A stretch of DNA of 10,589 bases from a bacterium (GCA_024278345.1 JAJRTK010000153.1:1-10589); one strand, 5' to 3'. Shown: positions 1-10,589, counted from the stretch's first letter. The notes: generated from the letters alone by a model not told the origin. Program-made: numbers and translations.

Positions 1-3000
1 AAGCTCGCCGAGATGGGCCGAGATCTCCTTGCCCGCGGCTTTGATCTCGTCCGGGAAGTAGAGTTCATAGACCAGGGCGTCGATGAGTTGTTCGAAGAAG
101 GCGGATTGGAGGGATTTGTCTTTCTGGACGGCGAGTTGGATATAGTCAACAAAGATGGAAAAGTACGGGGCTATCCGAGCATCATAGGGAACAATCGGTA
201 AGCACTCCACATACTGCTTGATATATCGCCTTGTTTTGCCCCTGACATCCGTTGCGATGAGCGGAAAATAGCAGTTCAGTATGGACGAATTCAATACAGC
301 CAGAATCCACCTGAGCCTTTTTCCGGTAAGGATGTATGAAGTATTGAGCACAAAGAACTCGTCCACCAGAAAAGCAAAATTGGCCTGTGGCGACATCTCA
401 AGCCAAACAATCTTCTCCTTCTCGAATTCCTCCATATAAGCACAGTTGCGGAGGTTGTAAGGGGTAACGCCCTTGTCCTGGCGTTTTGCCAGCCGGTCGT
501 AGTATTGATCGAGATGCGCTTTGATGGCAGGATAGTCGTTGATATTGATGGGCGGTACACCGCCGTAGCCGTTGTGGGTCGCAATCAGCCACAAATCGGC
601 GAAATCCACCCGGTAGCGCTTGATGTCCCGGCCCCTCAGGATGGGCTTGATGATCTCCGCGCTTTTCGGGTCGGCGGCGATGAGTTCGTCCTTCTTCTTG
701 GAGTCGATGATAAAGGCCTCGTTGAAGCCGGTCTTGATGCCGTAGTTGATGGACACGTCCCATTCCCTGAGCGGGGTGCCCACGGCTTCGATCCGTTTCT
801 TGATCTCGGCCATGGCCGGCTCCAGGATAATAAATCCGTCAGTGCTGAAAACAGGAGAGCCGGACTCTGCCCGCTCCAGCATTTTCTCGAGCGAGGTCGC
901 CGTCACAAAGGATGCGTTCAGGTCCCAGACTTCGGCGATTTTACCCGGGGATGATTTCCGGAAGATGAGAATATTGGTGTAGGTGGTCGCCTCCGAAAAA
1001 ATCGGGGCGTCACCAAAATCGATCACCTGCCGGATGTCTGCATTGGTAAGAAAAAACTCCCGGAGCTTTTTCCCGTAGGCGGCCCGCATCCACTTGTTGG
1101 AGGTGATGAAGGCCAGCATGCCGTTGTCACGCAGGATATTGTGACTTTTTTCGTAGAACAGACAGTAGATGTCGCCTCTTTTGGCAAAGGTTTTGTAGTT
1201 TTGTTTTTCCCAGTCCTTTTGAATCTGCTCTCCGGAGAATTTCTGGATCTGTACATACGGCGGGTTGCCTATCACTACGTCAAACCCGCCTTTTTCATGC
1301 CAGACTTCGGAAAAATGGACCTTGAAATCAAACTGTTTCCTGCCGTTGGTGATTTTCGAGATGAGCGATTCTATTTCACCGCTTAACTGCTCCTTTTCCT
1401 CATGATTCGTGGCGTCGAAAAAGGCTTCTTTCTTGGCCTCCAGCTCATTGAATAGTTGATGGTTGAAAAGATCCACTTCGATACCCAAAAGCGAGTCCCC
1501 CTGCACGATCTTGTAATCCAGGTTGGGCAGCGGCTCGATCGTGTCGTAGCGTTCTTCATCCACGATCATGGAGAGCCAGAGGCGCAGCCGGGCGATGTCG
1601 ATGGCCGAGGCGTCGATATCGACGCCGTAGATGGACTCGCGGATGGCGTGCCGCTTCAGGTCATAGGCGGTCATGGTGTTGCCGCTGTGCGGGGCCAGGG
1701 CAAGACGTGTATTGACGATCTCGTGCAGCAGCCCCACGGGGAAGGCGCCGGAGCCGATGGCCGGGTCGCAGATTTTGATGTCCGCCAGGGCATTGTCGAT
1801 ATCCTTGGCGTGGTTGCGCACCGACTCGGGGAGCTGGAATTTGTAGGTATCGGTCTCCCGGCCCTTGCTGAGCACCCGCTGGTCGTTTTCCAGGGCCAGG
1901 TGGCCCTTGCGGATCAGAGTTTCGATGTCTTCCTTGGGGACACGGACACTGCGGTGTTCCACCATGAGTTCCAACTGCCCCCTGCGTCCTTGGTTGCCCA
2001 ACAGGGAAAACTGATCGCTGCCGAGTTCCCGGCGGGCAGTGCCCACTCCGTTGAGCGTATCGTCCAGGTAGTAGATCAGGCTTTCCCGGCACATGTAGTG
2101 AACGATCTCCCGGGGGGTGTAGAAAGCGCCCTTCTGCTTGCGCTCGGTGACTTCGAGCATGTTCTCAAAGACCTTGCCCAGCATTTCCGGGTCGATGGCC
2201 ACTTCCTTTTCAAGGGGCTCGTCTTCCTTGACGGTGAAGTTGTAGCGGTCGAAGACATCGAGGATGCCGGTACCGTGGTCGCCCACCTTGTTTCTTTCAT
2301 TGTTGTGGAAGAGTTCGTCGGGCAGGTCGAGAGTTTCGCTTTGCCAGTCGTATTCCGCCTCGAAGAGCCCACCGTTGAGGAAGGGTATCTTGCAGTCAAA
2401 GCGGGGATAGAAATCTGGTTTTTTCTGGTCTTTCCGCTCTCCAGCGAGCGCGTCGTAAAAGAGGTAGCGGAGGAAATCGTTGAAATAGTTGCCGCCGTCT
2501 TGCGCAACCTGATCAAACCGCTCGCGCATGAACCGTTTGGACCCTTCGCCCCACTTGCCGCCCTTCGGAACGCCGAGCCAGCCCTTCTTCTGGAGGAAAT
2601 AGAGAAAGACGACCTGCCCGAGGAGTTTCTTGGCGAAACGGCTGACGGCCCGGTCGGTGTCTTCCTCGCTGTGGCGCTGGAAGAATGGCTGTTTTTTGAG
2701 ATGCCCGGCCAGCTTGAGAAACAACAGCCGGTATTGCTCGAAAAACTCGCTGGAAACCTTCTCGACGGAAAAGGCCGCTTCGATCTCTTCGATGCGCGGG
2801 TTGGCGTAATCCATGGCCAGGACGGGCAAAAGTTGTCTTGCCGCGGTATGGCTGTTTTCATGCGCGCCCACCAGGAAGGAATAACGCCGGGCCGGGGTCA
2901 GCTCCTGCCTGAGCTTGACTTTGCCCTTGTCGTCCCTGTATGCCTCGTGCTCGATCTTGACAAAGGAAAAGCGCCAGTCCGCGCCCTCATCGTCCTGGGC

Positions 3001-3336
3001 GTAGAAGGCGATCAATGATGCGTCCTTCTCAAATTGTTTGAGGCGGCTGACCGCGAAGTTGCGCAGGGCGCTGCGGGCCCGCTCCAGCTTGGCAGAGGTC
3101 TTTACCTCGACCACCAGCAAGTCCATTTCCACGCCTTCCGGGTCCACATATTTGCCGATACGCCTGTATTGATTGACATGCTCCTTGAAGGCGTCCGGGA
3201 TGTAGTTGCCGGCATAATGGGCGCTGCGCGGTTCAAAGTCATTGAGCAGGTTGCGCAGGAAATGTTCATAGCGCGTCTGGACGAAGGCCTGCGAAAAAAG
3301 CTCGCTGATCAGTTGTCTCGCCTGATTTCTGTCCAT
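1..3336 (-). CDS. Eco57I-class type IIG-like restriction nuclease/N6-adenine DNA methyltransferase (C-terminus beyond window)
   Basis: The frame is open from an ATG at 3336 through 1112 codons to the left edge with no stop, so the C-terminus is missing. Near the N-terminus, D72 followed by E77-V-K79 fits a PD-(D/E)XK nuclease core. The methyltransferase part shows AFYTP (F405, Y406: motif X), DPAIGSGAF from D524 (motif I, AdoMet binding), GVDID ending at D575 (motif II) and NPPY at 691-694 (catalytic motif IV of N6-adenine methyltransferases). After about residue 850 the sequence resembles a TaqI-like specificity domain. The family is known to combine cutting and methylation in one chain, usually 1000-1300 residues, so little is probably lost. 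The start follows the RBS AAGGGAG and lies 3 nt after a relic stop codon. The protein would methylate host sites and cut unmodified DNA. The family call is firm; the cutting activity and target site are inferred. Confidence 0.93.
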   Translation of the reverse strand, partial: MDRNQARQLISELFSQAFVQTRYEHFLRNLLNDFEPRSAHYAGNYIPDAFKEHVNQYRRIGKYVDPEGVEMDLLVVEVKTSAKLERARSALRNFAVSRLKQFEKDASLIAFYAQDDEGADWRFSFVKIEHEAYRDDKGKVKLRQELTPARRYSFLVGAHENSHTAARQLLPVLAMDYANPRIEEIEAAFSVEKVSSEFFEQYRLLFLKLAGHLKKQPFFQRHSEEDTDRAVSRFAKKLLGQVVFLYFLQKKGWLGVPKGGKWGEGSKRFMRERFDQVAQDGGNYFNDFLRYLFYDALAGERKDQKKPDFYPRFDCKIPFLNGGLFEAEYDWQSETLDLPDELFHNNERNKVGDHGTGILDVFDRYNFTVKEDEPLEKEVAIDPEMLGKVFENMLEVTERKQKGAFYTPREIVHYMCRESLIYYLDDTLNGVGTARRELGSDQFSLLGNQGRRGQLELMVEHRSVRVPKEDIETLIRKGHLALENDQRVLSKGRETDTYKFQLPESVRNHAKDIDNALADIKICDPAIGSGAFPVGLLHEIVNTRLALAPHSGNTMTAYDLKRHAIRESIYGVDIDASAIDIARLRLWLSMIVDEERYDTIEPLPNLDYKIVQGDSLLGIEVDLFNHQLFNELEAKKEAFFDATNHEEKEQLSGEIESLISKITNGRKQFDFKVHFSEVWHEKGGFDVVIGNPPYVQIQKFSGEQIQKDWEKQNYKTFAKRGDIYCLFYEKSHNILRDNGMLAFITSNKWMRAAYGKKLREFFLTNADIRQVIDFGDAPIFSEATTYTNILIFRKSSPGKIAEVWDLNASFVTATSLEKMLERAESGSPVFSTDGFIILEPAMAEIKKRIEAVGTPLREWDVSINYGIKTGFNEAFIIDSKKKDELIAADPKSAEIIKPILRGRDIKRYRVDFADLWLIATHNGYGGVPPININDYPAIKAHLDQYYDRLAKRQDKGVTPYNLRNCAYMEEFEKEKIVWLEMSPQANFAFLVDEFFVLNTSYILTGKRLRWILAVLNSSILNCYFPLIATDVRGKTRRYIKQYVECLPIVPYDARIAPYFSIFVDYIQLAVQKDKSLQSAFFEQLIDALVYELYFPDEIKAAGKEISAHLGEL

Positions 3337-3375
3337 GTGTTACGTATCTCCCTTGGCGTTCAGATACCCGGACAG
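3333..3375 (-). repeat. Copy A of a 43-bp duplicated gene junction (before methyltransferase)
   Basis: It matches 4615-4657 at 37 of 43 positions. On the minus strand it contains codons for LSGYLNAKGDT, a TAA stop, the RBS AAGGGAG, the spacer AACAC and the ATGG start. Two of the substitutions relative to copy B are synonymous (GGT/GGG, TAC/TAT), so the segment diverged while still coding. The copy supplies the translation start of the methyltransferase. Confidence 0.9.
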
Positions 3376-3423
3376 TTCTTGGTTGTGGCTCATGAAATAG
3401 CCACAAGGGTCGTTGTGGCTCAT
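3340..3423 (-). other. 27-codon open frame ending in a relic of the helicase C-terminus
   Basis: This short frame ends TAA 3 nt before the methyltransferase ATG. Its last residues read LSGYLNAKGDT, nearly the same as the helicase end LSGYLVAKGDV. It starts with MSHND and repeats MSHNQ ten codons later. No ribosome-binding site precedes its ATG, and that ATG overlaps a possible -10 box. It is most likely a scar of an older helicase gene end rather than a gene, though it could act as a coupling leader peptide. Confidence 0.4.
3383..3420 (-). repeat. Three-element alternating repeat able to form two exclusive hairpins
   Basis: On the + strand TTGTGGCT (3383-3390), AGCCACAA (3399-3406) and TTGTGGCT (3413-3420) follow one another. 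The middle element can pair with either neighbour in a perfect 8-bp stem with an 8-nt or a 6-nt loop. The outer copies also lie within a 12-bp direct repeat (GTTGTGGCTCAT at 3382 and 3412). The repeat sits in the leader of the methyltransferase gene. It could be a binding site for a dimeric regulator or an RNA switch; neither is shown. Confidence 0.6.
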
Positions 3424-3446
3424 ATTTTTTGACTTGTGAGCCTCAA
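3419..3446 (-). promoter_or_regulatory. Possible internal sigma70-type promoter for the methyltransferase gene
   Basis: The boxes are TTGAGG (3441-3446), a 16-nt spacer with a run of A, and TATGAG (3419-3424), each 4 of 6 to consensus. It lies in the gap after fic, upstream of the methyltransferase start at 3336. A separate promoter would let protective methylation run independently of the helicase and Fic. The call rests on box similarity alone. Confidence 0.35.
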
Positions 3447-3472
3447 GTGTTGTTGTCTGTAATACACGAGAC

Positions 3473-4618
3473 TCAAAACGCATCATAGCCCTCGGCGATG
3501 TTCAGCAATTCAGGATAAGCGAGGGTTGCGGCGCGTCGGCCCCTGCCGGGCTGGATTTCCCCCAGAACGCCTTCGGTCTTGAGGAGATTGAGTATCCGCT
3601 GGGCCGTGGGTTTTGGAATACCGGCCTGGCGAACAAAAGCGGAACTCTTGAAAATCGGCCGCTCGAATATCCAGTCCAGGGCATGAATCGCGTACTGGGA
3701 ATGGGTCAGTTCGGCAAAACGTGTTTTCATCCGGTCGTAGAGATCGAGAATGGCCTGGGCCTTGGCGAGGTTTTCCTCGGCCTGTATCCGGACGACTTTC
3801 AGGAAAAAGGCGCACCAGCCGGACCAGTCGTCATCGTGGGATACGGCCAGAAGCCGTTCGTAGTATTCGTCGCGGTGGCTTTCCAGGTAGGCGCTGATGT
3901 AGAACATGGGCTGGCGGATCATCCCGACCTGATGCAGAAGAAGCGGAATCAGCATCCGTCCCAGGCGGCCGTTGCCGTCCAGAAAGGGATGCAGGGCCTC
4001 GAATTCCGCATGGAGCAGGGCCAACTGGATCAGCCGGTCCGGGGCTTCTTCGTGGATATATCTTTCCCAGCGGGACATGGCCTCGGGCAGCTTATCTGCG
4101 GCAATCGGCACAAACCTGGCTTCTTCAATGGAACAGCCCTTTGGGCCGATCCAGTTCGGCATTCTTCGATACTCACCAGGGGCCTTGCCGTGGCCGCGCA
4201 CGCTGTTGAGCAGTATCCGGTGGCATTCCAGCACGACGCGCTGACAGAGAGGTAATTCCTTCAACATTTCCGTGGCAGCGCGCATGGCCCTGCGGTAGTT
4301 GAGGATTTCCCAGATATCCGCTTCCTTGGGCGTTGAGGGTTCCTCCGCCTCTCCGATGGCTTCGTATTCAAGCACCTCGCCCATGGTGGCCTGAGTGCCT
4401 TCTATACGGGACGAGAGCACCGCCTCCTGGGTGGTGAGCGGGCTAAGCAAAACATGGGCGTTGGGGATAGCGGCCAGCATGCCGTCATAGCGGGCCACCG
4501 CCGCACTGGCCGGACCGATCAGCGGCACCAGTCGCGCCCAGTCCAGTTCCCCGGGCGGAAATCTGCCTTCGTGATAATGAACGGGGCCGATCCGTTCTCT
4601 TGGCTGCTCATTGCCCAT
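3473..4618 (-). CDS. Fic-family protein AMPylase with N-terminal inhibitory motif and C-terminal winged helix
   Basis: The 381-residue product carries the complete FIC signature HPFLDGNGRLGR at 210-221, with catalytic His210 and the GNGR phosphate-binding loop. FIC proteins with this signature usually transfer AMP from ATP to a hydroxyl side chain of a target protein. SSRIEG at 69-74 fits the (S/T)xxxE(G/N) inhibitory motif; in class II Fic proteins its glutamate (here E73) blocks productive ATP binding. Residues about 1-90 look like a Fic_N domain, and 320-360 read as a winged helix-turn-helix. No membrane segment or signal peptide is visible. The start is 3 nt after the helicase stop, with AAGGGAG in the helicase end as RBS, so it is cotranscribed. 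All key residues are intact. The target protein cannot be told; a role as toxin or regulator of the neighbouring system is inferred from the operon. Confidence 0.93.
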   Translation of the reverse strand: MGNEQPRERIGPVHYHEGRFPPGELDWARLVPLIGPASAAVARYDGMLAAIPNAHVLLSPLTTQEAVLSSRIEGTQATMGEVLEYEAIGEAEEPSTPKEADIWEILNYRRAMRAATEMLKELPLCQRVVLECHRILLNSVRGHGKAPGEYRRMPNWIGPKGCSIEEARFVPIAADKLPEAMSRWERYIHEEAPDRLIQLALLHAEFEALHPFLDGNGRLGRMLIPLLLHQVGMIRQPMFYISAYLESHRDEYYERLLAVSHDDDWSGWCAFFLKVVRIQAEENLAKAQAILDLYDRMKTRFAELTHSQYAIHALDWIFERPIFKSSAFVRQAGIPKPTAQRILNLLKTEGVLGEIQPGRGRRAATLAYPELLNIAEGYDAF

Positions 4619-4657
4619 GTGTTACACATCTCCCTTGGCGACCAGGTAACCGGACAG
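4615..4657 (-). repeat. Copy B of the 43-bp duplicated gene junction (helicase end/fic start)
   Basis: This copy is the true 3' end of the helicase gene (LSGYLVAKGDV, TAA) plus the ribosome-binding site and ATGG start of fic. See copy A at 3333-3375. Beyond CTGTCC on the 5' side the similarity stops abruptly. Confidence 0.9.
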
Positions 4658-7600
4658 GATGACTTCGCGCCGCGCCCGCACCCGGTTGCCCTGCCTGGCC
4701 CCGGAATCATCCAGCAGCCGGATATTCTTGCGGAGAATGGTAAGCATCTCCAGGGGATCGATGGTCTTTTCAAACTCTTTCTTGATGGTCTGCGCCGTCT
4801 TCTTGGCCATCGTACCCTGGCTCAACATGCGGCGGACCCCTTCGATGAACTCTTCATCCGCCTCCGTGAACTTGGGACAACTGCGGAATGCCTTGTCCTT
4901 GAGGCGCTTTTCTACATAACCCACGTTCGATTGGCCGCCCATTCGCGCTTTCGCAGGCTCTTTCGCCTGAATGCTGTCCTGCTCAAACCGCTGCTTATTG
5001 ATTTCCAGACGGTCGTGATAGTCATCGGGCACAGGATGGCGCGGGGTACCAGGAGCGCATTCCAGAAGCCTGACCGCGTCGAAAAATGTGATTTCCTCAC
5101 TTCGGCCGTCCTGGTTGCGATAGAATTTCTTGAGTTTGCCGATGCGGAAGAACGTAACCAGTTGGTCCGCGGCAATGGTGTCAACCACACGGCCGGAGCG
5201 GGCCTTCTTTGGCAGGCGCTTGATTTTTTCGAACAGTCTTGGGTCCTCGTCCCTGAGCCTACGCATCATTTCGAGGTACATCAGTTCCGGGTCCCCCTCC
5301 TCATCTTCACCGGTATAGGCCTTTTTACTGTTCAAGGTATCGAACAACTCCTGGCTCCCGATTTCCTCGCCATCCGAAAGGTATCTTGCGTCTTCACCCA
5401 GAATGGCGTGAAACATCTGGATCTTGTTGGTGATGTTCGCCTCCAGCCCCAGATGCGCGTCCGATTGCGTGGTGGGAAAGAAATTGTAAATGTAGAGTTT
5501 CTTGTGTTCTGTCCCCAGGCGATTGATACGGCCCATTCGTTGCAGAACCCGTGTCGGATTCCACGGGAGATCGTAATTGATGATGATATTGGCCCGGTGG
5601 AGATTGATACCCTCGGACAGTACATCCGTGGCTATGAGGAGCCGCGGCTTTTCGTTCGACTCCTTATGGCTGGGATCAAACGCGGCCTTTATCAATTCCC
5701 GGGCCGGCGCATGAGCAAGGATGTCGTCGCCAAATTGCCCGCCGTGACTGCTGTAGAACAGGACTTCGCCGGGATAGTGACGGTTGAGCTGGTCAAACAA
5801 ATACTCCCCAGTTTCCCGCGACTCGGTGAAAACGACGATTTTTCGCCTTTTCATGGTTCCGTCGGTTGTCAGCTTATTGGTAAATGTTGCGAGCTTCGGG
5901 TCATCCTCCACTTCTTTCCAAAGCGCCTCAACCTTGCGGAGAGTGTTCAGATCGTAGCCCAAATCGTCAAGAAACTCGCAGCGAAAATCTTCTGAGCTGT
6001 ACTGATGCACCTTTTCTTCCTCCACGAGTCTTTCCATGGTTTCAACGTCATCGCTGTCAAGCAATTCGTACACATCGACCTTTTTGCTGATATAGACGCA
6101 ACCGGCCTCGAACATGGTGATGAACCGCTCGTATGACTGAATGAACCGCTTGATACTCTGACGGAATGCATGGAAGCTGCTCTCCAACCGCTTGATCAAC
6201 ACGCCTTTCATAAAGCCGCCGACATTGCGCTGCTGCTGTTGTTCAAACGCTGTCAGTTGCTTGGCGCCGCTGTAATAGAGAAGGGGGATGTACCTGGAAT
6301 AGCGGAACTTTTGAAGCAAGGCAATGGTTTTACTGAAAATATCCTCCAGTTCGCCCTCGAAGGTATAAACAATCTTCTGCGGGTCATCGACTTCGGGAAA
6401 GAAGAGTCCCTGTTCTTCCATGTCTTTCTTGAAGTAGGTCGATACGTCGGTGCGGGTCCGGCGAACCATGGTATGCTTGAGAATCCGTTCACGGATATCG
6501 GCGGAAACCGCTTTGATGGTTTCCCGGTAGGCAGGATCCTTGCGGTCCAGGCCCTTGAATTTCCGGCGCAGTTTCTGAAAATATCTTTCCAGGTTCGGTA
6601 TCCCGGGAATGGTGGAGTTCTTGGGAGCCTGAAAGAGTTTTAATTGAGCAAAGATATCATCGATTGTGTTGTTCAACGGTGTCGCGGTCACCAAAATGAC
6701 CTTTTTGCCCCGGCAGATGTCCAGGAGATCGGCATAGGACTGCGTGGTCTCGTTCCGAAAACGGTGGGCCTCATCGACGACCACGTAGTCAAAACGATCA
6801 AGACCAAAACGGATGACATGATCGAGCTTGCCGAGCGACTCCACCCGGGCCGGCACCCGGAAATCATGCAGGCTTTCCTCCCAATAGCCTTTGAGCCCCG
6901 GAGGGCAGACGACCAGGATCCTCCCCTTGACCTGCTGAAGAAGCTGGGCCGTGATAAAGGTCTTTCCGAGACCAACCACATCAGACAGAAAGGCACCGCC
7001 ATGTTCTTCCAGCTTCTTGAGGGCCTGAATCACGGCCTGTTTCTGGTATTCAAGAGACATGAATCCTGCCGGAAGAAATACCTCCACATCATCCTGCAGG
7101 TTTATGTCTTCCTGCATGTATTCGTAAATCAGCTTGAGATACAGTTCACAGGGGGTAATCGTGTCATTGAGCCAGGTATTGTGTCGCACGACTTCAACGA
7201 AATCCCGGGATATGTCCACTGACTGACGCCAAAGCTCTTCGAACTTCTCCAGAGCGAACTCCACATCTCGACGCTGGCGCAGTTCGACATTGAACTCGCG
7301 GTTTGCAACCAAACCGGAATAGGAAAAGTTGCTGGATCCGGTGATAACGAAACCATAGTCCCGGTCATCGGGACTGAATCGTCCAATATAGACTTTGGCG
7401 TGGATGTTCCGTGATGGAAACGCGCGGATTTCTAACTTCTTCCCGTTGCCTCCCTTCTTTCTGTCCGCTTCGGCAAGGGGACATTCCACTTGCAGAAACT
7501 TGATGAATTTCTTGAGGCCTATTTCCAGTTGCTTGTCAGGTTCCGGCGAATCTTCAACTTCGTGCGTGAGCTTTTCCTGAAAAAGTCTCCTGGTATTCGC

Positions 7601-7864
7601 ATGTGATTCGAAATCGATTGTCGTTTGCCGGTGATCAGGGTGCAGGGCATGGTAAACTTCGTCGTCTATTCCCAGACCGACAAGTATTCGAACCTTTTCG
7701 AGCGGTTCTATTGCCTCATAGAGCTGAAAAAATCCACTAGCATAAAAATATCCGACGAGGATATCAAACAGGCGTGTATCAGCCAAGGTCGCCCTGAAGC
7801 GATCCAGCAGGGTCTGACTTGCATCATTAGTAAAGAATGTCAGATCAGTCTTGTTTCTTATCAT
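4622..7864 (-). CDS. HKD (phospholipase D-like) nuclease fused to SNF2-type superfamily 2 helicase
   Basis: The 1080-residue product has two parts. The N-terminal 1-230 is PLD-like, with H155-A-K157 and GSSN at 176-179 (HxK plus downstream GSxN, the HKD catalytic motif). Only one HKD copy is seen, so an active site would need a dimer, as in Nuc-type nucleases. The helicase follows: Walker A GLGKT (298-302), DEAH (364-367), TAT (393-395), motif IV KIVVFTES near 675, motif V IATDVLSEGINL near 744 and motif VI QRMGR (775-779). About 270 C-terminal residues, rich in charge, are not recognised. The ATG overlaps the XRE stop as ATGA, implying translational coupling. By family the protein should be an ATP-driven dsDNA translocase; DNA cutting by the HKD part is inferred. 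Relatives in function are the separate PLD and SNF2 proteins of DISARM, but here they are one chain. The 3' end is partly duplicated before the methyltransferase gene. Confidence 0.94.
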   Translation of the reverse strand: MIRNKTDLTFFTNDASQTLLDRFRATLADTRLFDILVGYFYASGFFQLYEAIEPLEKVRILVGLGIDDEVYHALHPDHRQTTIDFESHANTRRLFQEKLTHEVEDSPEPDKQLEIGLKKFIKFLQVECPLAEADRKKGGNGKKLEIRAFPSRNIHAKVYIGRFSPDDRDYGFVITGSSNFSYSGLVANREFNVELRQRRDVEFALEKFEELWRQSVDISRDFVEVVRHNTWLNDTITPCELYLKLIYEYMQEDINLQDDVEVFLPAGFMSLEYQKQAVIQALKKLEEHGGAFLSDVVGLGKTFITAQLLQQVKGRILVVCPPGLKGYWEESLHDFRVPARVESLGKLDHVIRFGLDRFDYVVVDEAHRFRNETTQSYADLLDICRGKKVILVTATPLNNTIDDIFAQLKLFQAPKNSTIPGIPNLERYFQKLRRKFKGLDRKDPAYRETIKAVSADIRERILKHTMVRRTRTDVSTYFKKDMEEQGLFFPEVDDPQKIVYTFEGELEDIFSKTIALLQKFRYSRYIPLLYYSGAKQLTAFEQQQQRNVGGFMKGVLIKRLESSFHAFRQSIKRFIQSYERFITMFEAGCVYISKKVDVYELLDSDDVETMERLVEEEKVHQYSSEDFRCEFLDDLGYDLNTLRKVEALWKEVEDDPKLATFTNKLTTDGTMKRRKIVVFTESRETGEYLFDQLNRHYPGEVLFYSSHGGQFGDDILAHAPARELIKAAFDPSHKESNEKPRLLIATDVLSEGINLHRANIIINYDLPWNPTRVLQRMGRINRLGTEHKKLYIYNFFPTTQSDAHLGLEANITNKIQMFHAILGEDARYLSDGEEIGSQELFDTLNSKKAYTGEDEEGDPELMYLEMMRRLRDEDPRLFEKIKRLPKKARSGRVVDTIAADQLVTFFRIGKLKKFYRNQDGRSEEITFFDAVRLLECAPGTPRHPVPDDYHDRLEINKQRFEQDSIQAKEPAKARMGGQSNVGYVEKRLKDKAFRSCPKFTEADEEFIEGVRRMLSQGTMAKKTAQTIKKEFEKTIDPLEMLTILRKNIRLLDDSGARQGNRVRARREVILSGYLVAKGDV

Positions 7865-8088
7865 TTGTCGTCTCCGGCAAACTCCAGTTTCCCCTGTTTG
7901 ACCATCTTGTCACAGAAACTATTGAATTGCGCTCTTGCCAACTTGAATGGCGTGGTCTTGCCGTTCTCCCAGCGGTTGATGGTGGCAAAGCTCACCCCCA
8001 GCTCGTGGGCCAGCTCCTCCTGGCTGATGCCTAGTTGTCTGCGGACTTCCTTCACCAATTCCGGGAATGTCCTAGAGGTTTCGGTCAT
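7861..8088 (-). CDS. XRE-family helix-turn-helix regulator
   Basis: This 75-residue protein is almost entirely one HTH_3 domain: VKEVRRQLGISQEELAHELG covers the first helices, and VSFATINRWENGK is the recognition helix with the typical RWENG turn. Such small proteins bind palindromic operators as dimers and often control restriction-modification genes, like C proteins. An in-frame ATG at 8205 would give 114 residues, but it overlaps the best -10 box. The ATG at 8088 has AAAGGAC 6 nt upstream, and the protein from there begins MTETSRTFPELV at the domain border. The stop overlaps the helicase ATG by 4 bp. Regulation of its own promoter is inferred from the palindromes upstream. Confidence 0.88.
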   Translation of the reverse strand: MTETSRTFPELVKEVRRQLGISQEELAHELGVSFATINRWENGKTTPFKLARAQFNSFCDKMVKQGKLEFAGDDK

Positions 8089-8094
8089 CGCAAT

Positions 8095-8101
8095 GTCCTT
8101 T
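8095..8101 (-). promoter_or_regulatory. Ribosome-binding site deciding the XRE start
   Basis: AAAGGAC on the minus strand lies 6 nt before the ATG at 8088. No comparable sequence precedes the upstream in-frame ATGs at 8133 or 8205. Confidence 0.7.
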
Positions 8102-8136
8102 GCCGCGCCTTCTCGGTGGCGTTTCCCGGCCATAAG

Positions 8137-8154
8137 TGGGCAAGTACTTACCCA
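8137..8154. promoter_or_regulatory. 18-bp near-palindrome in the XRE leader (candidate operator)
   Basis: TGGGCAAGTACTTACCCA is self-complementary in 16 of 18 positions. It is followed at once by two TGGCCA palindromes (8155-8160 and 8163-8168), 8 bp apart. It lies about 50 bp before the XRE start, inside the expected transcript. A dimeric HTH protein could bind here; its sequence differs from the palindrome at 8209-8228. Confidence 0.5.
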
Positions 8155-8200
8155 TGGCCAACTGGCCACAGGCGGTGCGTTCGGCCTGAAATGTGAAAAC

Positions 8201-8230
8201 ATCATATAGCACGTGTCATGTCACGTGCAA
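8201..8230 (-). promoter_or_regulatory. sigma70-type promoter of the XRE-helicase-fic operon
   Basis: TTGCAC (8225-8230), an 18-nt spacer and TATGAT (8201-8206, 5 of 6 to consensus) point leftward. The predicted start of transcription near 8194 leaves a leader of about 105 nt to the ATG at 8088. The spacer is filled by a palindrome, as expected for a repressible promoter. Confidence 0.6.
8209..8228. promoter_or_regulatory. 20-bp near-palindrome within the operon promoter (candidate operator)
   Basis: GCACGTGTCATGTCACGTGC is self-complementary in 18 of 20 positions, with perfect 7-bp outer arms. It covers the space between the -35 and -10 boxes and overlaps the -35 box, so a bound protein would exclude RNA polymerase. 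The XRE protein encoded just downstream is the natural candidate ligand; this is inference. Confidence 0.55.
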
Positions 8231-8428: not shown

Positions 8429-8781
8429 TGGTGGAGGCGCCGGGAGTCGAACCCGGGTCCGAAAAACCTCGGCTCGAGGTGTCTACGTGCGTAGCCGTCT
8501 GTTTTGCGTTAGCTCACGGAACTCCCAGCGGCAGGATTTCCGCTCGCGAGTGGGATCGCTTCTCGCCGGCCGAGGTCACCCACGGGACCCCGGCGGCACG
8601 AGACTGCTGACATTATGCCCTCCCGGCCCCGCAGCCTGAACCGGGAAAACAGCCTAGGCTACTGCCTGGGCGAGGTAGTCGTTGTTGTTGGCGACTGTAG
8701 TTTTGAGCCTGTTTTACGAGGCGGCCCACCTCAGCACGCTGCCCCGGCCTACCGGTTCCCCGTCGAAGCCACATCGCCCCC
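8429..8781 (-). ncRNA. ssrA: Transfer-messenger RNA (tmRNA), one-piece
   Basis: The 353-nt RNA rescues stalled ribosomes by acting as alanine tRNA and then as a short message, together with SmpB. The 5' end GGGGGCGATGTGGCTTCGAC pairs in a 7-bp acceptor stem with CGCCTCC at the 3' end, followed by an encoded ACCA. The T arm is CCGGG-TTCGACT-CCCGG. The message begins at the resume codon GCC (8690-8692) and ends TAG (8654-8656), encoding ANNNDYLAQAVA. The length and the single piece are normal for bacteria. Its 3' end is the border between G+C-rich host sequence and the island to the left, and ssrA 3' ends are known integration sites for tyrosine-recombinase elements. Confidence 0.97.
8654..8692 (-). 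other. tmRNA tag-peptide reading frame
   Basis: Translated from the resume codon GCC it reads ANNNDYLAQAVA, then TAG. The first residues (AN..D-Y) are typical. The C-terminal AVA replaces the widespread LAA that ClpX recognises. Confidence 0.9.
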
Positions 8782-8815
8782 ATTCGGAAATCGGGTTGCC
8801 AACCTGTCTGTCTGC

Positions 8816-8844
8816 ATCATACGCACCTCCAGGGGAACCGTCAA
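8816..8844 (-). promoter_or_regulatory. sigma70-type promoter of ssrA
   Basis: TTGACG (8839-8844), an exact 17-nt spacer and TATGAT (8816-8821) are 5 of 6 to consensus in both boxes. Transcription would start near 8809. That leaves a 5' leader of roughly 28 nt, to be removed at 8781, the usual RNase P cut of pre-tmRNA. Strong expression fits an abundant RNA. Confidence 0.75.
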
Positions 8845-8949
8845 GCAGAACCGCGTATTCCGCGGCGTCAGCTTTGCCGTTGCGTTCACCCGGCCTGGCC
8901 GGCTACCCTGTCCTCGATGTCGTATCGTGCACCAGCAAAACGTAAGCCT

Positions 8950-8956
8950 GGAGGAG
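8950..8956 (+). promoter_or_regulatory. Ribosome-binding site deciding the lipoprotein start
   Basis: GGAGGAG ends 3 nt before the ATG at 8960. The frame is open further upstream to 8615, but that part overlaps ssrA and lacks a signal peptide; this site fixes the start in front of the lipoprotein signal. Confidence 0.75.
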
Positions 8957-8959
8957 ACG

Positions 8960-10144
8960 ATGAATCGCCTACACCCCCGATGGCTCCTCACCATGGCCCT
9001 GCTCGCCTTGCCAGCCGGGTGCGGGAGCGGGAGCGGCGACGACACCGGGGACGATGACGCCGTCTCCCCGGTTGTCACGCCAACCGTTCGAGCAGAGACC
9101 GCGACGCCGGCACCGGCGCCCCCAACGCCCACGGCAGCTCCGGAACCGACGCCCGTGCCGGTCCTCCGGCTCATCTCGAGTTCCCCCGGGGACGGGGCGA
9201 TGGCTGTGCCTCGAGATACCTCGTTCACGCTTCTCTTCAGTGCACCAATCACGGCTGACCTCGAGGTGTTCGACGTGACACTCGCCGAGGAGGGCGAGGA
9301 GCCTGTGACCCTGACGGCCCCCTTCCTGGACGACGATGGGAGGGCCGTGGTCTATCCCCCCATCGGCCTCAAGCAGGACACCGACTACACCCTCTCGGCC
9401 ACCATGCTCGAGTCGCCCGACCAGGTGGCCCAGCCCGACTCCTGGCCTCTGAGCATCGAAGCCCGCTTCACGACCCGCGTGCCCTGCGGTATCAGCTTCA
9501 ACATCGCATACGGCGTCACGCTGGAGCAACTCGGGGGCAATGCCGACCTGTTGGGGTTGCTCAACGACGCCCTCTCGGCCGCCTACCTCAACCCGGTCGC
9601 CCTGATGTTCGTCGACACCTACGCGGACCTCACACTACCCCTGGATGCGGTCGGCGTGGCCTCCGGACTCGCATACTACTCGGACACTCCCGGCGAGGAG
9701 GGCCTCTTCGTGGTGGACGATGCCTTCGGATTTCCAGTCTCCATGACCGGGTGCACGGTCGCGGCCGATGGCGCACTCCACTGCGGCCCCCAGACCTTCG
9801 TGTTTCCCATTCCTATCACCGACGCTACCATCCTCAACCTGTACATCTCCGGGGCCGAGATCACCGGGATCCTCACCCCGATTCCCGGGGAAGACGAGGG
9901 AGACCCATCCTACGTCTCGCTCACCGACTTCCGGCTCGCCGGCGTTATCACCGAGGAAGACATCGCGCGCATCGGGGAGGAGACCGGACTGACCATGATC
10001 ATCGACACCCTGCTGGTCCTCGACCAGGATCTCGACGGTGACGGCGTCCCCGACGCGGCGTCAGCGGCGGCGACCTCCTCGCCCTACTGGATCCAGTTCA
10101 CCCACTGCGACCCCTTCCACGCCCCCACGCCGGAGCCGCCCTAG
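8960..10144 (+). CDS. Secreted lipoprotein with Pro/Thr linker, Big_5 Ig-like domain and DxDxDG motif
   Basis: The 394-residue protein starts MNRLHPRWLLTMALLALPAG-C21: a basic N-region, a hydrophobic core and a lipobox with Cys21, so it should be exported, lipid-anchored and exposed outside the inner membrane. Proline at -3 of the lipobox is unusual. Residues 22-35 are Gly/Asp rich, and 38-68 form a Pro/Thr/Ala spacer. About 74-173 (SSPGDGAMAVPRDTSFTLLF onward) resembles the Big_5/SbsA Ig-like fold common in surface proteins. The rest (174-394) is not recognised; it has paired cysteines C176, C265, C275 and C383, and DQDLDGDGVPD at 355-365, a calcium-binding loop of the type-3-repeat/EF-hand kind. 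Codons are much richer in G+C than in the island genes, so it is probably host chromosomal. It diverges from ssrA; no convincing promoter was seen. Function unknown, probably binding or structural at the surface. Confidence 0.9.
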   Translation: MNRLHPRWLLTMALLALPAGCGSGSGDDTGDDDAVSPVVTPTVRAETATPAPAPPTPTAAPEPTPVPVLRLISSSPGDGAMAVPRDTSFTLLFSAPITADLEVFDVTLAEEGEEPVTLTAPFLDDDGRAVVYPPIGLKQDTDYTLSATMLESPDQVAQPDSWPLSIEARFTTRVPCGISFNIAYGVTLEQLGGNADLLGLLNDALSAAYLNPVALMFVDTYADLTLPLDAVGVASGLAYYSDTPGEEGLFVVDDAFGFPVSMTGCTVAADGALHCGPQTFVFPIPITDATILNLYISGAEITGILTPIPGEDEGDPSYVSLTDFRLAGVITEEDIARIGEETGLTMIIDTLLVLDQDLDGDGVPDAASAAATSSPYWIQFTHCDPFHAPTPEPP

Positions 10145-10508: not shown

Positions 10509-10589
10509 CCCCGCTCCCCGCTCCCCGCTCCCCGCTCCCCGCTCCCCGCTCCCCGCTCCCCGCTCCCCGCTCCCCGCTCCCCGCTCCCC
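10509..10589. repeat. Heptamer tandem repeat (CCCCGCT)n running off the window
   Basis: About eleven and a half exact head-to-tail copies of CCCCGCT are present, with period 7 and no visible variation, and they continue past the right edge. The opposite strand is GGGG separated by 3-nt AGC loops, a pattern able to form G-quadruplexes. Perfect identity indicates recent expansion by slippage, or a maintained array; it could also be hard to assemble correctly. Confidence 0.97.

What the first reader, a model, noticed from the sequence alone, without database searches (positions are those of the whole stretch)
1..8230. Candidate defence operon: XRE regulator, HKD-SNF2 helicase, Fic AMPylase, Eco57I nuclease-methyltransferase
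Four intact leftward genes combine a DNA methyltransferase/nuclease, a nuclease-helicase and an AMPylase under one HTH regulator. Type ISP enzymes join nuclease, SF2 helicase and methyltransferase in one chain. DISARM uses separate SNF2, PLD and methyltransferase genes plus DUF1998 proteins. This set has neither layout and adds Fic, so it may be a distinct restriction-type system with a protein-modifying arm. The sequence shows the domains and gene order; the joint function is inference.
Basis: partly seen in the sequence, partly recalled or inferred. Interest (0 to 1): 0.8.

Follow-up and report, generated by a model that had tools for sequence, protein, structure and literature searches.

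The report
Helicase-methylase restriction operon with inserted Fic
This is a bacterial anti-virus operon of a recurrent restriction-modification-like type (a DNA-cutting helicase next to a DNA methylase), into which a separate protein-modifying defence gene (Fic) was inserted, leaving a duplicated piece of DNA that shows how the insertion happened.

Summary
The four genes are there, in the stated order on the minus strand, but the methylase gene runs off the contig end, so three are complete. The real unit is a conserved core, XRE – HKD-SNF2 helicase – Eco57I/TaqI_C (type IIG-like) methylase. In 45 of 45 related loci with enough sequence, from several phyla, the methylase is the next core gene downstream on the same strand, usually within -4 to +170 bp. 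Helicase and methylase core co-diverge (Mantel r 0.88), while the specificity domain is hypervariable. The same domain pair was described in 2018 in Lactococcus as a putative RM system, so the core is not new. Fic is not core: it is at this junction in 0 of the 45 relatives. It is an embedded SoFic-type abortive-infection gene. The junction is a cargo slot: 13 of the 45 relatives hold other defence-type genes there, and in Thermus thermophilus pVV8 a SoFic is embedded at the helicase/methylase junction of an Hma system. A 72-nt direct repeat (helicase 3' end + methylase 5' end) flanks Fic, so Fic was inserted into a once-direct junction, and its first 11 codons copy the methylase start. Best reading: two-subunit RM plus an embedded suicide backup; any joint function is inferred.

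The parts
8203..8230 (-). Promoter-like boxes TTGCAC (8230-8225) and TATATG (8208-8203), 16-bp spacer, with an 18/20 palindrome GCACGTGACATGACACGTGC (8228-8209) in between: candidate operator of the XRE regulator
   Evidence: palindrome not expected in shuffles; the standard consensus scan did not list this site; relatives L006, L008, L019 show similar AT-rich boxes at the same place
7861..8088 (-). XRE/HTH_3 regulator, 75 aa
   Evidence: Pfam HTH_3 4.6e-13; 66-71% identical orthologues overlap the SNF2 start by 4 bp in L006, L008 and L019
4622..7864 (-). HKD (PLD) nuclease - SNF2 helicase fusion, 1080 aa
   Evidence: Pfam PLDc_2, SNF2-rel_dom, Helicase_C; PADLOC C3a139 'HKD+Snf2' 1.5e-51; H155, T175-S178, GxGKT, DEAH, R776/R779 conserved in 43 homologues
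3473..4618 (-). Class II Fic AMPylase of the SoFic family, 381 aa, embedded between helicase and methylase
   Evidence: PADLOC SoFic 1.9e-111; Fic_N and Fic; HPFLDGNGRLGR and inhibitory SSRIEG motifs in the sequence; SoFic crystal structure 3eqx E=8.6e-36
4586..4657 (-). 72-nt direct repeat copy A: SNF2 3' end, stop, spacer and first 11 codons of Fic
   Evidence: 56/72 identical to copy B; best 43 nt 37/43 against a maximum of 28 in 100 shuffles
3304..3375 (-). 72-nt direct repeat copy B: relic SNF2 tail (non-coding here), stop and first 11 codons of the methylase
   Evidence: matches the single SNF2|methylase junction of L006 at 59/72
1..3336 (-). Eco57I/N6 methyltransferase with TaqI_C specificity domain (type IIG-like), 1112 codons, 3' end off the contig
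   Evidence: Pfam Eco57I 5.8e-48, TaqI_C 2.5e-14; PADLOC REase_MTase_IIG 2.5e-286; DPAxGSG and NPPY invariant or nearly so; no other contig of the assembly carries the missing end
8429..8781 (-). tmRNA (ssrA) gene directly upstream of the operon: likely integration hot spot (context only)
   Evidence: Rfam RF00023 E=9.8e-68; ARAGORN

Best explanation
The operon is a two-subunit, ATP-dependent restriction-modification-like defence system carrying an embedded suicide gene. The Eco57I/TaqI_C protein recognises a short DNA sequence and methylates adenine on self DNA. The HKD-SNF2 protein, recruited or licensed at unmodified DNA, translocates and cuts with its HKD (PLD) nuclease. The small XRE protein represses the operon through a palindrome in the promoter. 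The Fic is a SoFic-type AMPylase inserted later into the helicase|methylase junction; it uses a copy of the methylase's start region for its own translation and acts as an abortive-infection backup if the restriction arm fails. Shown here: domains and motifs, conservation and co-divergence of the core, the hypervariable specificity domain, and the insertion scar. Inferred: biochemistry, target sequence, Fic trigger and target, cooperation between Fic and the RM core.
For: Domains and motifs. The methylase follows the helicase on the same strand in 45/45 relatives with enough sequence; homologues above the threshold in 20/395 genomes of the phylum of L015 and 18/395 of the phylum of L014 (the counts include the reference genomes used as centres). 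Co-divergence of SNF2 with the methylase core r=0.88, Mantel 0/999; with the specificity domain r=0.38, down to 11% identity between pairs whose SNF2 is over 60% identical. Fic absent from all 45 junctions, other cargo in 13. 72-nt junction repeat and direct junction in L006. The nearest Fic relatives found stand outside such systems: L050, 76%, next to a phage integrase; H29, 60%, on a conjugative plasmid. SoFic embedded in a genuine Hma system. SoFic acts by abortive infection through AMPylation (PMC12249575). The lactococcal pair was interpreted in the same way (PMC6098607).
Against: No functional test. The methylase N-terminal domain may itself be an active nuclease (PD-(D/E)XK-like matches at Z 3-5.5), which would make the HKD-SNF2 accessory. 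The part of the operon beyond base 1 is unseen. No SoFic antitoxin (AS1-like) gene was found: the only small ORF after Fic is the relic SNF2 tail. Fic being co-transcribed does not prove it cooperates with the RM core.
Confidence: 0.7

Rival explanations
1. The methylase is a self-sufficient type IIG restriction enzyme (it cuts with its own N-terminal nuclease) and the HKD-SNF2 protein is an accessory that strips proteins or degrades cut DNA.
For: PADLOC type IIG model over residues 1-1096; N-terminal fold weakly PD-(D/E)XK-like, e.g. Cas4-type SSO0001 Z 5.3; D65, D72 and E/Q-x-K present in the near clade.
Against: E77 is E in 16/39 and K79 is K in 24/39 homologues; the arginines R88, R92 and R122 are far better conserved than the would-be active site. 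The lactococcal study found no restriction domain in the homologous methylase (PMC6098607).
Confidence: 0.2
2. The four genes form one dedicated system in which Fic AMPylates the helicase or methylase, or a host target, as an obligatory arm.
For: Tight coupling (3 bp after SNF2) and one strand; Fic carries its inhibitory motif, so it needs a trigger.
Against: No Fic at 45/45 related junctions; many other gene types fill the slot; the insertion scar; no Fic in 6 of 10 relatives' genomes at E 1e-20, and only 29-36% identical ones in the rest.
Confidence: 0.07
3. Fic is a selfish addiction gene that hitch-hikes in the operon and stabilises it; it is not a defence effector.
For: Fic is a known toxin fold; relatives lie on mobile elements.
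Against: No antitoxin gene next to it; SoFic is reported to be protective against phage (PMC12249575).
Confidence: 0.2

Closest known systems
PLD-SNF2 + type IIG-like pair of Lactococcus lactis pLd8 orf33/orf34 (PMC6098607); same domain pair seen here on pJM1F (L111)
   Same: HKD/PLD-SNF2-helicase gene followed by an Eco57I/TaqI_C methylase; same domains and the same RM interpretation
   Different: Only 23-26% (SNF2) and about 33% (methylase) identical; no XRE and no Fic at the junction
Hma / DUF499-centred BREX-related (BR) systems (PMC8565338, PMC12839542)
   Same: SNF2-type helicase plus N6-MTase; HKD-helicase fusion in Type-2 BR; cargo genes including SoFic embedded at the helicase/methylase junction (T. 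thermophilus pVV8, L053)
   Different: No DUF499 ATPase, DUF1156 methylase or DUF3780 seen; HmaA model only 89 bits here against 1324 for the true HmaA
DISARM class 1 (DrmD + DrmMI)
   Same: Separate SNF2-like helicase and Eco57I-type methylase; DrmD and DrmMI are secondary matches
   Different: Far below the family cut-off (158.9 against 610 bits); no DrmA/B/C; the nuclease is fused to the helicase
SoFic (class II Fic, Shewanella oneidensis and E. coli)
   Same: HPFxxGNGRxxR, inhibitory S-x3-E-G motif, full-length PADLOC match, solved homologues
   Different: Below the NCBIfam equivalog cut-off (169 against 550 bits); no AS1 antitoxin gene; embedded in an RM-like operon

Membership tests
HKD-SNF2 / type IIG-like pair (as in L. 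lactis pLd8) | HKD/PLD nuclease fused N-terminal to an SNF2 helicase | tested here: met
HKD-SNF2 / type IIG-like pair (as in L. lactis pLd8) | Adjacent Eco57I methylase with TaqI_C specificity domain on the same strand | tested here: met
   45/45 relatives
Type IIG restriction enzyme | Methyltransferase motifs and specificity domain in one chain | tested here: met
Type IIG restriction enzyme | Active N-terminal nuclease in the same chain | tested here: inconclusive
   weak PD-(D/E)XK-like fold matches; catalytic E-x-K not conserved in the family
SoFic | Class II Fic with HPFxxGNGRxxR and N-terminal inhibitory motif | tested here: met
   sequence
SoFic | Downstream AS1-like antitoxin gene (reported for one E. 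coli SoFic; not required of the family) | tested here: not met
   the 136-bp gap holds only a 27-codon relic of the SNF2 tail
Hma / Type-2 BR | DUF499 ATPase in the locus | tested here: not met
   no DUF499 in G000; in the other ten genomes the only hits are ORFs of about 1100 aa that do not appear in the loci's maps; the unseen side of the window's contig cannot be tested
DISARM | DrmB / DUF1998 (MZB) protein in the locus | tested here: not met
   nearest MZB in the same genome is on another contig, C390; helicase far below the DrmD cut-off
Type ISP | Nuclease, helicase, methylase and specificity domain in one chain | tested here: not met
   separate chains
Anti-phage defence system | Demonstrated protection against phage | not testable with these tools
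   needs plaque assays

The most novel reading that the evidence does not exclude
The helicase|methylase junction is a dedicated cargo slot, and a cargo gene enters with a duplication of the junction itself (helicase 3' end + methylase 5' end), so that the new gene is born with the methylase's ribosome site and start codons and keeps the polycistron intact. The 72-nt scar around Fic, and a second duplicated methylase start in L100, would be traces of a general embedding mechanism shared with Hma and other systems.
Probability: 0.35. Interest if true: 0.6.

Novelty: new variant of a known kind. Interest (0 to 1): 0.42.

Why it matters
It separates a conserved RM-like core (helicase-nuclease plus methylase with swappable specificity) from exchangeable suicide or backup cargo. 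It also gives a rare sequence-level scar of how such cargo becomes embedded, a question usually addressed only by co-occurrence counts. The slot can be used to find further defence genes.

Tried and rejected
Viral-contig scan with the helicase: nothing. Phage collection: helicase hits only at 25-27%, and no Fic hit at E<=1e-40. AlphaFold model of the full helicase: too poor (pLDDT 50), not used. N-terminal methylase model: Foldseek nothing below 1e-3, VIA-align matches at Z<=5.5, treated as inconclusive. Search for the missing 3' end on another contig: none. att duplication of the ssrA 3' end: none in the assembly. tRNA/tmRNA next to related loci: none adjacent to the operon in those scanned; L007 has tRNAs 4 to 9 kb away. 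Flanking junction repeats in the other loci with cargo: only L100 positive, 12 negative. L072, L057, L059: damaged copies, not counted as clean anatomy.

Full report
WHAT IS THERE. The window is the start of contig C73 of a 6.06-Mb, 550-contig assembly. On the minus strand lie an XRE/HTH_3 regulator (8088-7861), a 1080-aa HKD/PLD-SNF2 helicase (7864-4622, overlapping the XRE by 4 bp), a 381-aa Fic protein (4618-3473, 3 bp later) and, after 136 bp, an Eco57I methylase that runs off the contig at base 1. A tmRNA gene (8781-8429) lies directly upstream, an insertion hot spot in many bacteria (general knowledge); no duplicated ssrA end was found in the assembly.

PROTEINS. The helicase matches PLDc_2, SNF2-rel_dom and Helicase_C; its best PADLOC model is C3a139 'HKD+Snf2' (1.5e-51), ahead of DrmD, PLD_Helicase and HmaA. 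In 43 homologues H155, T175, G176, S177, S178, the Walker lysine, DEAH and the motif VI arginines are invariant or nearly so. The methylase matches the PADLOC type IIG model over 1-1096 (2.5e-286), Eco57I and the TaqI_C specificity domain; DPAxGSG and NPPY are invariant or nearly so. Its N-terminal domain models with fair confidence (pLDDT about 80-90 over most of residues 1-130) and has weak PD-(D/E)XK-like matches, but E77 is E in only 16 of 39 and K79 is K in 24 of 39 homologues, so an active nuclease there is doubtful. The Fic matches SoFic (1.9e-111) and solved SoFic structures (8.6e-36), with HPFLDGNGRLGR and the class II inhibitory SSRIEG.

DOES IT RECUR? A scan of one genome per species with the helicase gave 14 loci at 63-86% identity in Proteobacteria, Desulfobacterota-like bacteria, Chlorobia, Bacteroidota and Fraserbacteria. 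Samples of about 395 genomes each gave homologues (E<=1e-150) in 20 of the phylum of L015's genome, 18 of the phylum of L014's genome, and 1 of 398 of the phylum of L008's genome; these counts include the reference genomes themselves. In all 45 loci with enough downstream sequence the methylase, or in L072 its remnant, is the next core gene on the same strand, usually -4 to +170 bp away. Helicase and methylase core identities correlate at r = 0.88 (Mantel 0 of 999 permutations), the specificity domain only at 0.38, with values down to 0.11 among pairs whose helicases are over 60% identical: the pattern of an RM system that keeps its machine and changes its target. The XRE recurs at 66-71% identity with the same 4-bp overlap in L006, L008 and L019.

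FIC IS CARGO. No relative has Fic at the junction (0 of 45). Thirteen carry something else there: HEC-01 ATPase plus DUF4276 (L010), PDDEXK_3 (L014), Schlafen AlbA_2 (L020, L059), Bro-N/PDC-S13 (L057, L060), MNT-HepT (L064), AAA_16 (L100), YhcG nucleases (L101, L105, L110), DUF3800/PDC-M04 (L102), NYN (L104). Several of these are PADLOC HEC/PDC families, which the literature says were defined by 'guilt by embedding' in Hma and other systems (PMC12988326). In Thermus thermophilus HB8 pVV8 a SoFic (2.6e-120) lies between HmaA (1324 bits) and HmaB, with HmaC nearby: the same cargo in the corresponding slot of a different system, although HmaA there is on the opposite strand. The nearest relatives of this Fic found stand elsewhere: L050 (76%) next to a phage integrase on a viral contig, H29 (60%) on a conjugative plasmid.

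THE SCAR. In L006, the closest relative (helicase 86%, methylase 79%), the two genes are 3 bp apart with the junction GTAACACATGGAC. In the window that junction occurs twice, on either side of Fic: a 72-nt direct repeat, 56/72 identical (4657-4586 and 3375-3304 on the minus strand); its first 43 nt match at 37/43 against a maximum of 28 in 100 shuffles. Each copy is 59/72 identical to the L006 junction. Copy A is the real helicase end, its stop and the first 11 codons of Fic; copy B is a relic helicase tail, its stop and the first 11 codons of the methylase. Fic therefore begins MGNEQPRERIG against MDRNQARQLIS in the methylase, and homology with other Fic proteins starts only at residue 12-13. 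The insertion duplicated the junction, and Fic took over a copy of the methylase's start region. L100 shows a second, decayed case: a methylase 5' fragment (57/70) after the helicase, before its AAA gene. Twelve other cargo loci show no detectable scar, so generality is unproven.

MECHANISM. Most likely a two-subunit RM-like system: the methylase with its specificity domain marks self, and the HKD-SNF2 protein translocates and cuts unmarked DNA. [quoted passage not shown] the corresponding pair on pJM1F was checked here. SoFic is reported to cause abortive infection by AMPylation (PMC12249575), so the embedded Fic is best read as a backup. Domains, conservation, co-divergence and the scar are shown; activities, target site, trigger and cooperation are inferred.

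REGULATION. An 18/20 palindrome (8228-8209) sits between TTGCAC and TATATG boxes; relatives have similar AT-rich boxes at the same place. The standard promoter scan did not list this site. XRE autorepression is a reasonable inference only.

KNOWN OR NEW. Not DISARM (no DUF1998/MZB nearby; DrmD 158.9 against a cut-off of 610 bits), not Hma/BR (no DUF499 seen), not type ISP (separate chains). The core is a known but little-studied kind. The SoFic-bearing form and the insertion scar are a new variant.

Noticed in passing
window 3382-3423: GTTGTGGCTCAT is repeated exactly 30 bp apart with an opposing AGCCACAA in between (three half-sites) in the Fic-methylase gap: possible regulator site or hairpin.
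   Followed up: partly
window 10509-10589: Perfect 7-bp tandem repeat (CCCCGCT, 11.6 copies) running to the window's end, next to a Big_5 lipoprotein-like gene.
   Followed up: no
window 8615-10144: ORF on the other strand listed from 8615 overlaps tmRNA; its real start is probably near the MNRLHPRWLL lipoprotein signal. Big_5 domain.
   Followed up: no
L014 8217-12205 and L016 9390-13354: PDC-M23A/B (HamB-like helicase pair) follows the methylase directly in L014 and, by size and position, in L016; a Schlafen AlbA_2 gene follows it in L007 and, by length and position, probably in L009, L011 and L018.
   Followed up: partly
L058 1201-2298: A distinct Fic protein (about 25% identical) about 4 kb downstream of the methylase, in the same orientation.
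   Followed up: partly
L111 5161-9290: Lactococcus pJM1F carries a spare TaqI_C specificity fragment inverted beside the methylase plus a serine recombinase: possible phase-variable target switching.
   Followed up: no
L072 5992-9044: Core helicase-methylase pair apparently broken into fragments in G162, with a transposase-like ORF inside.
   Followed up: no
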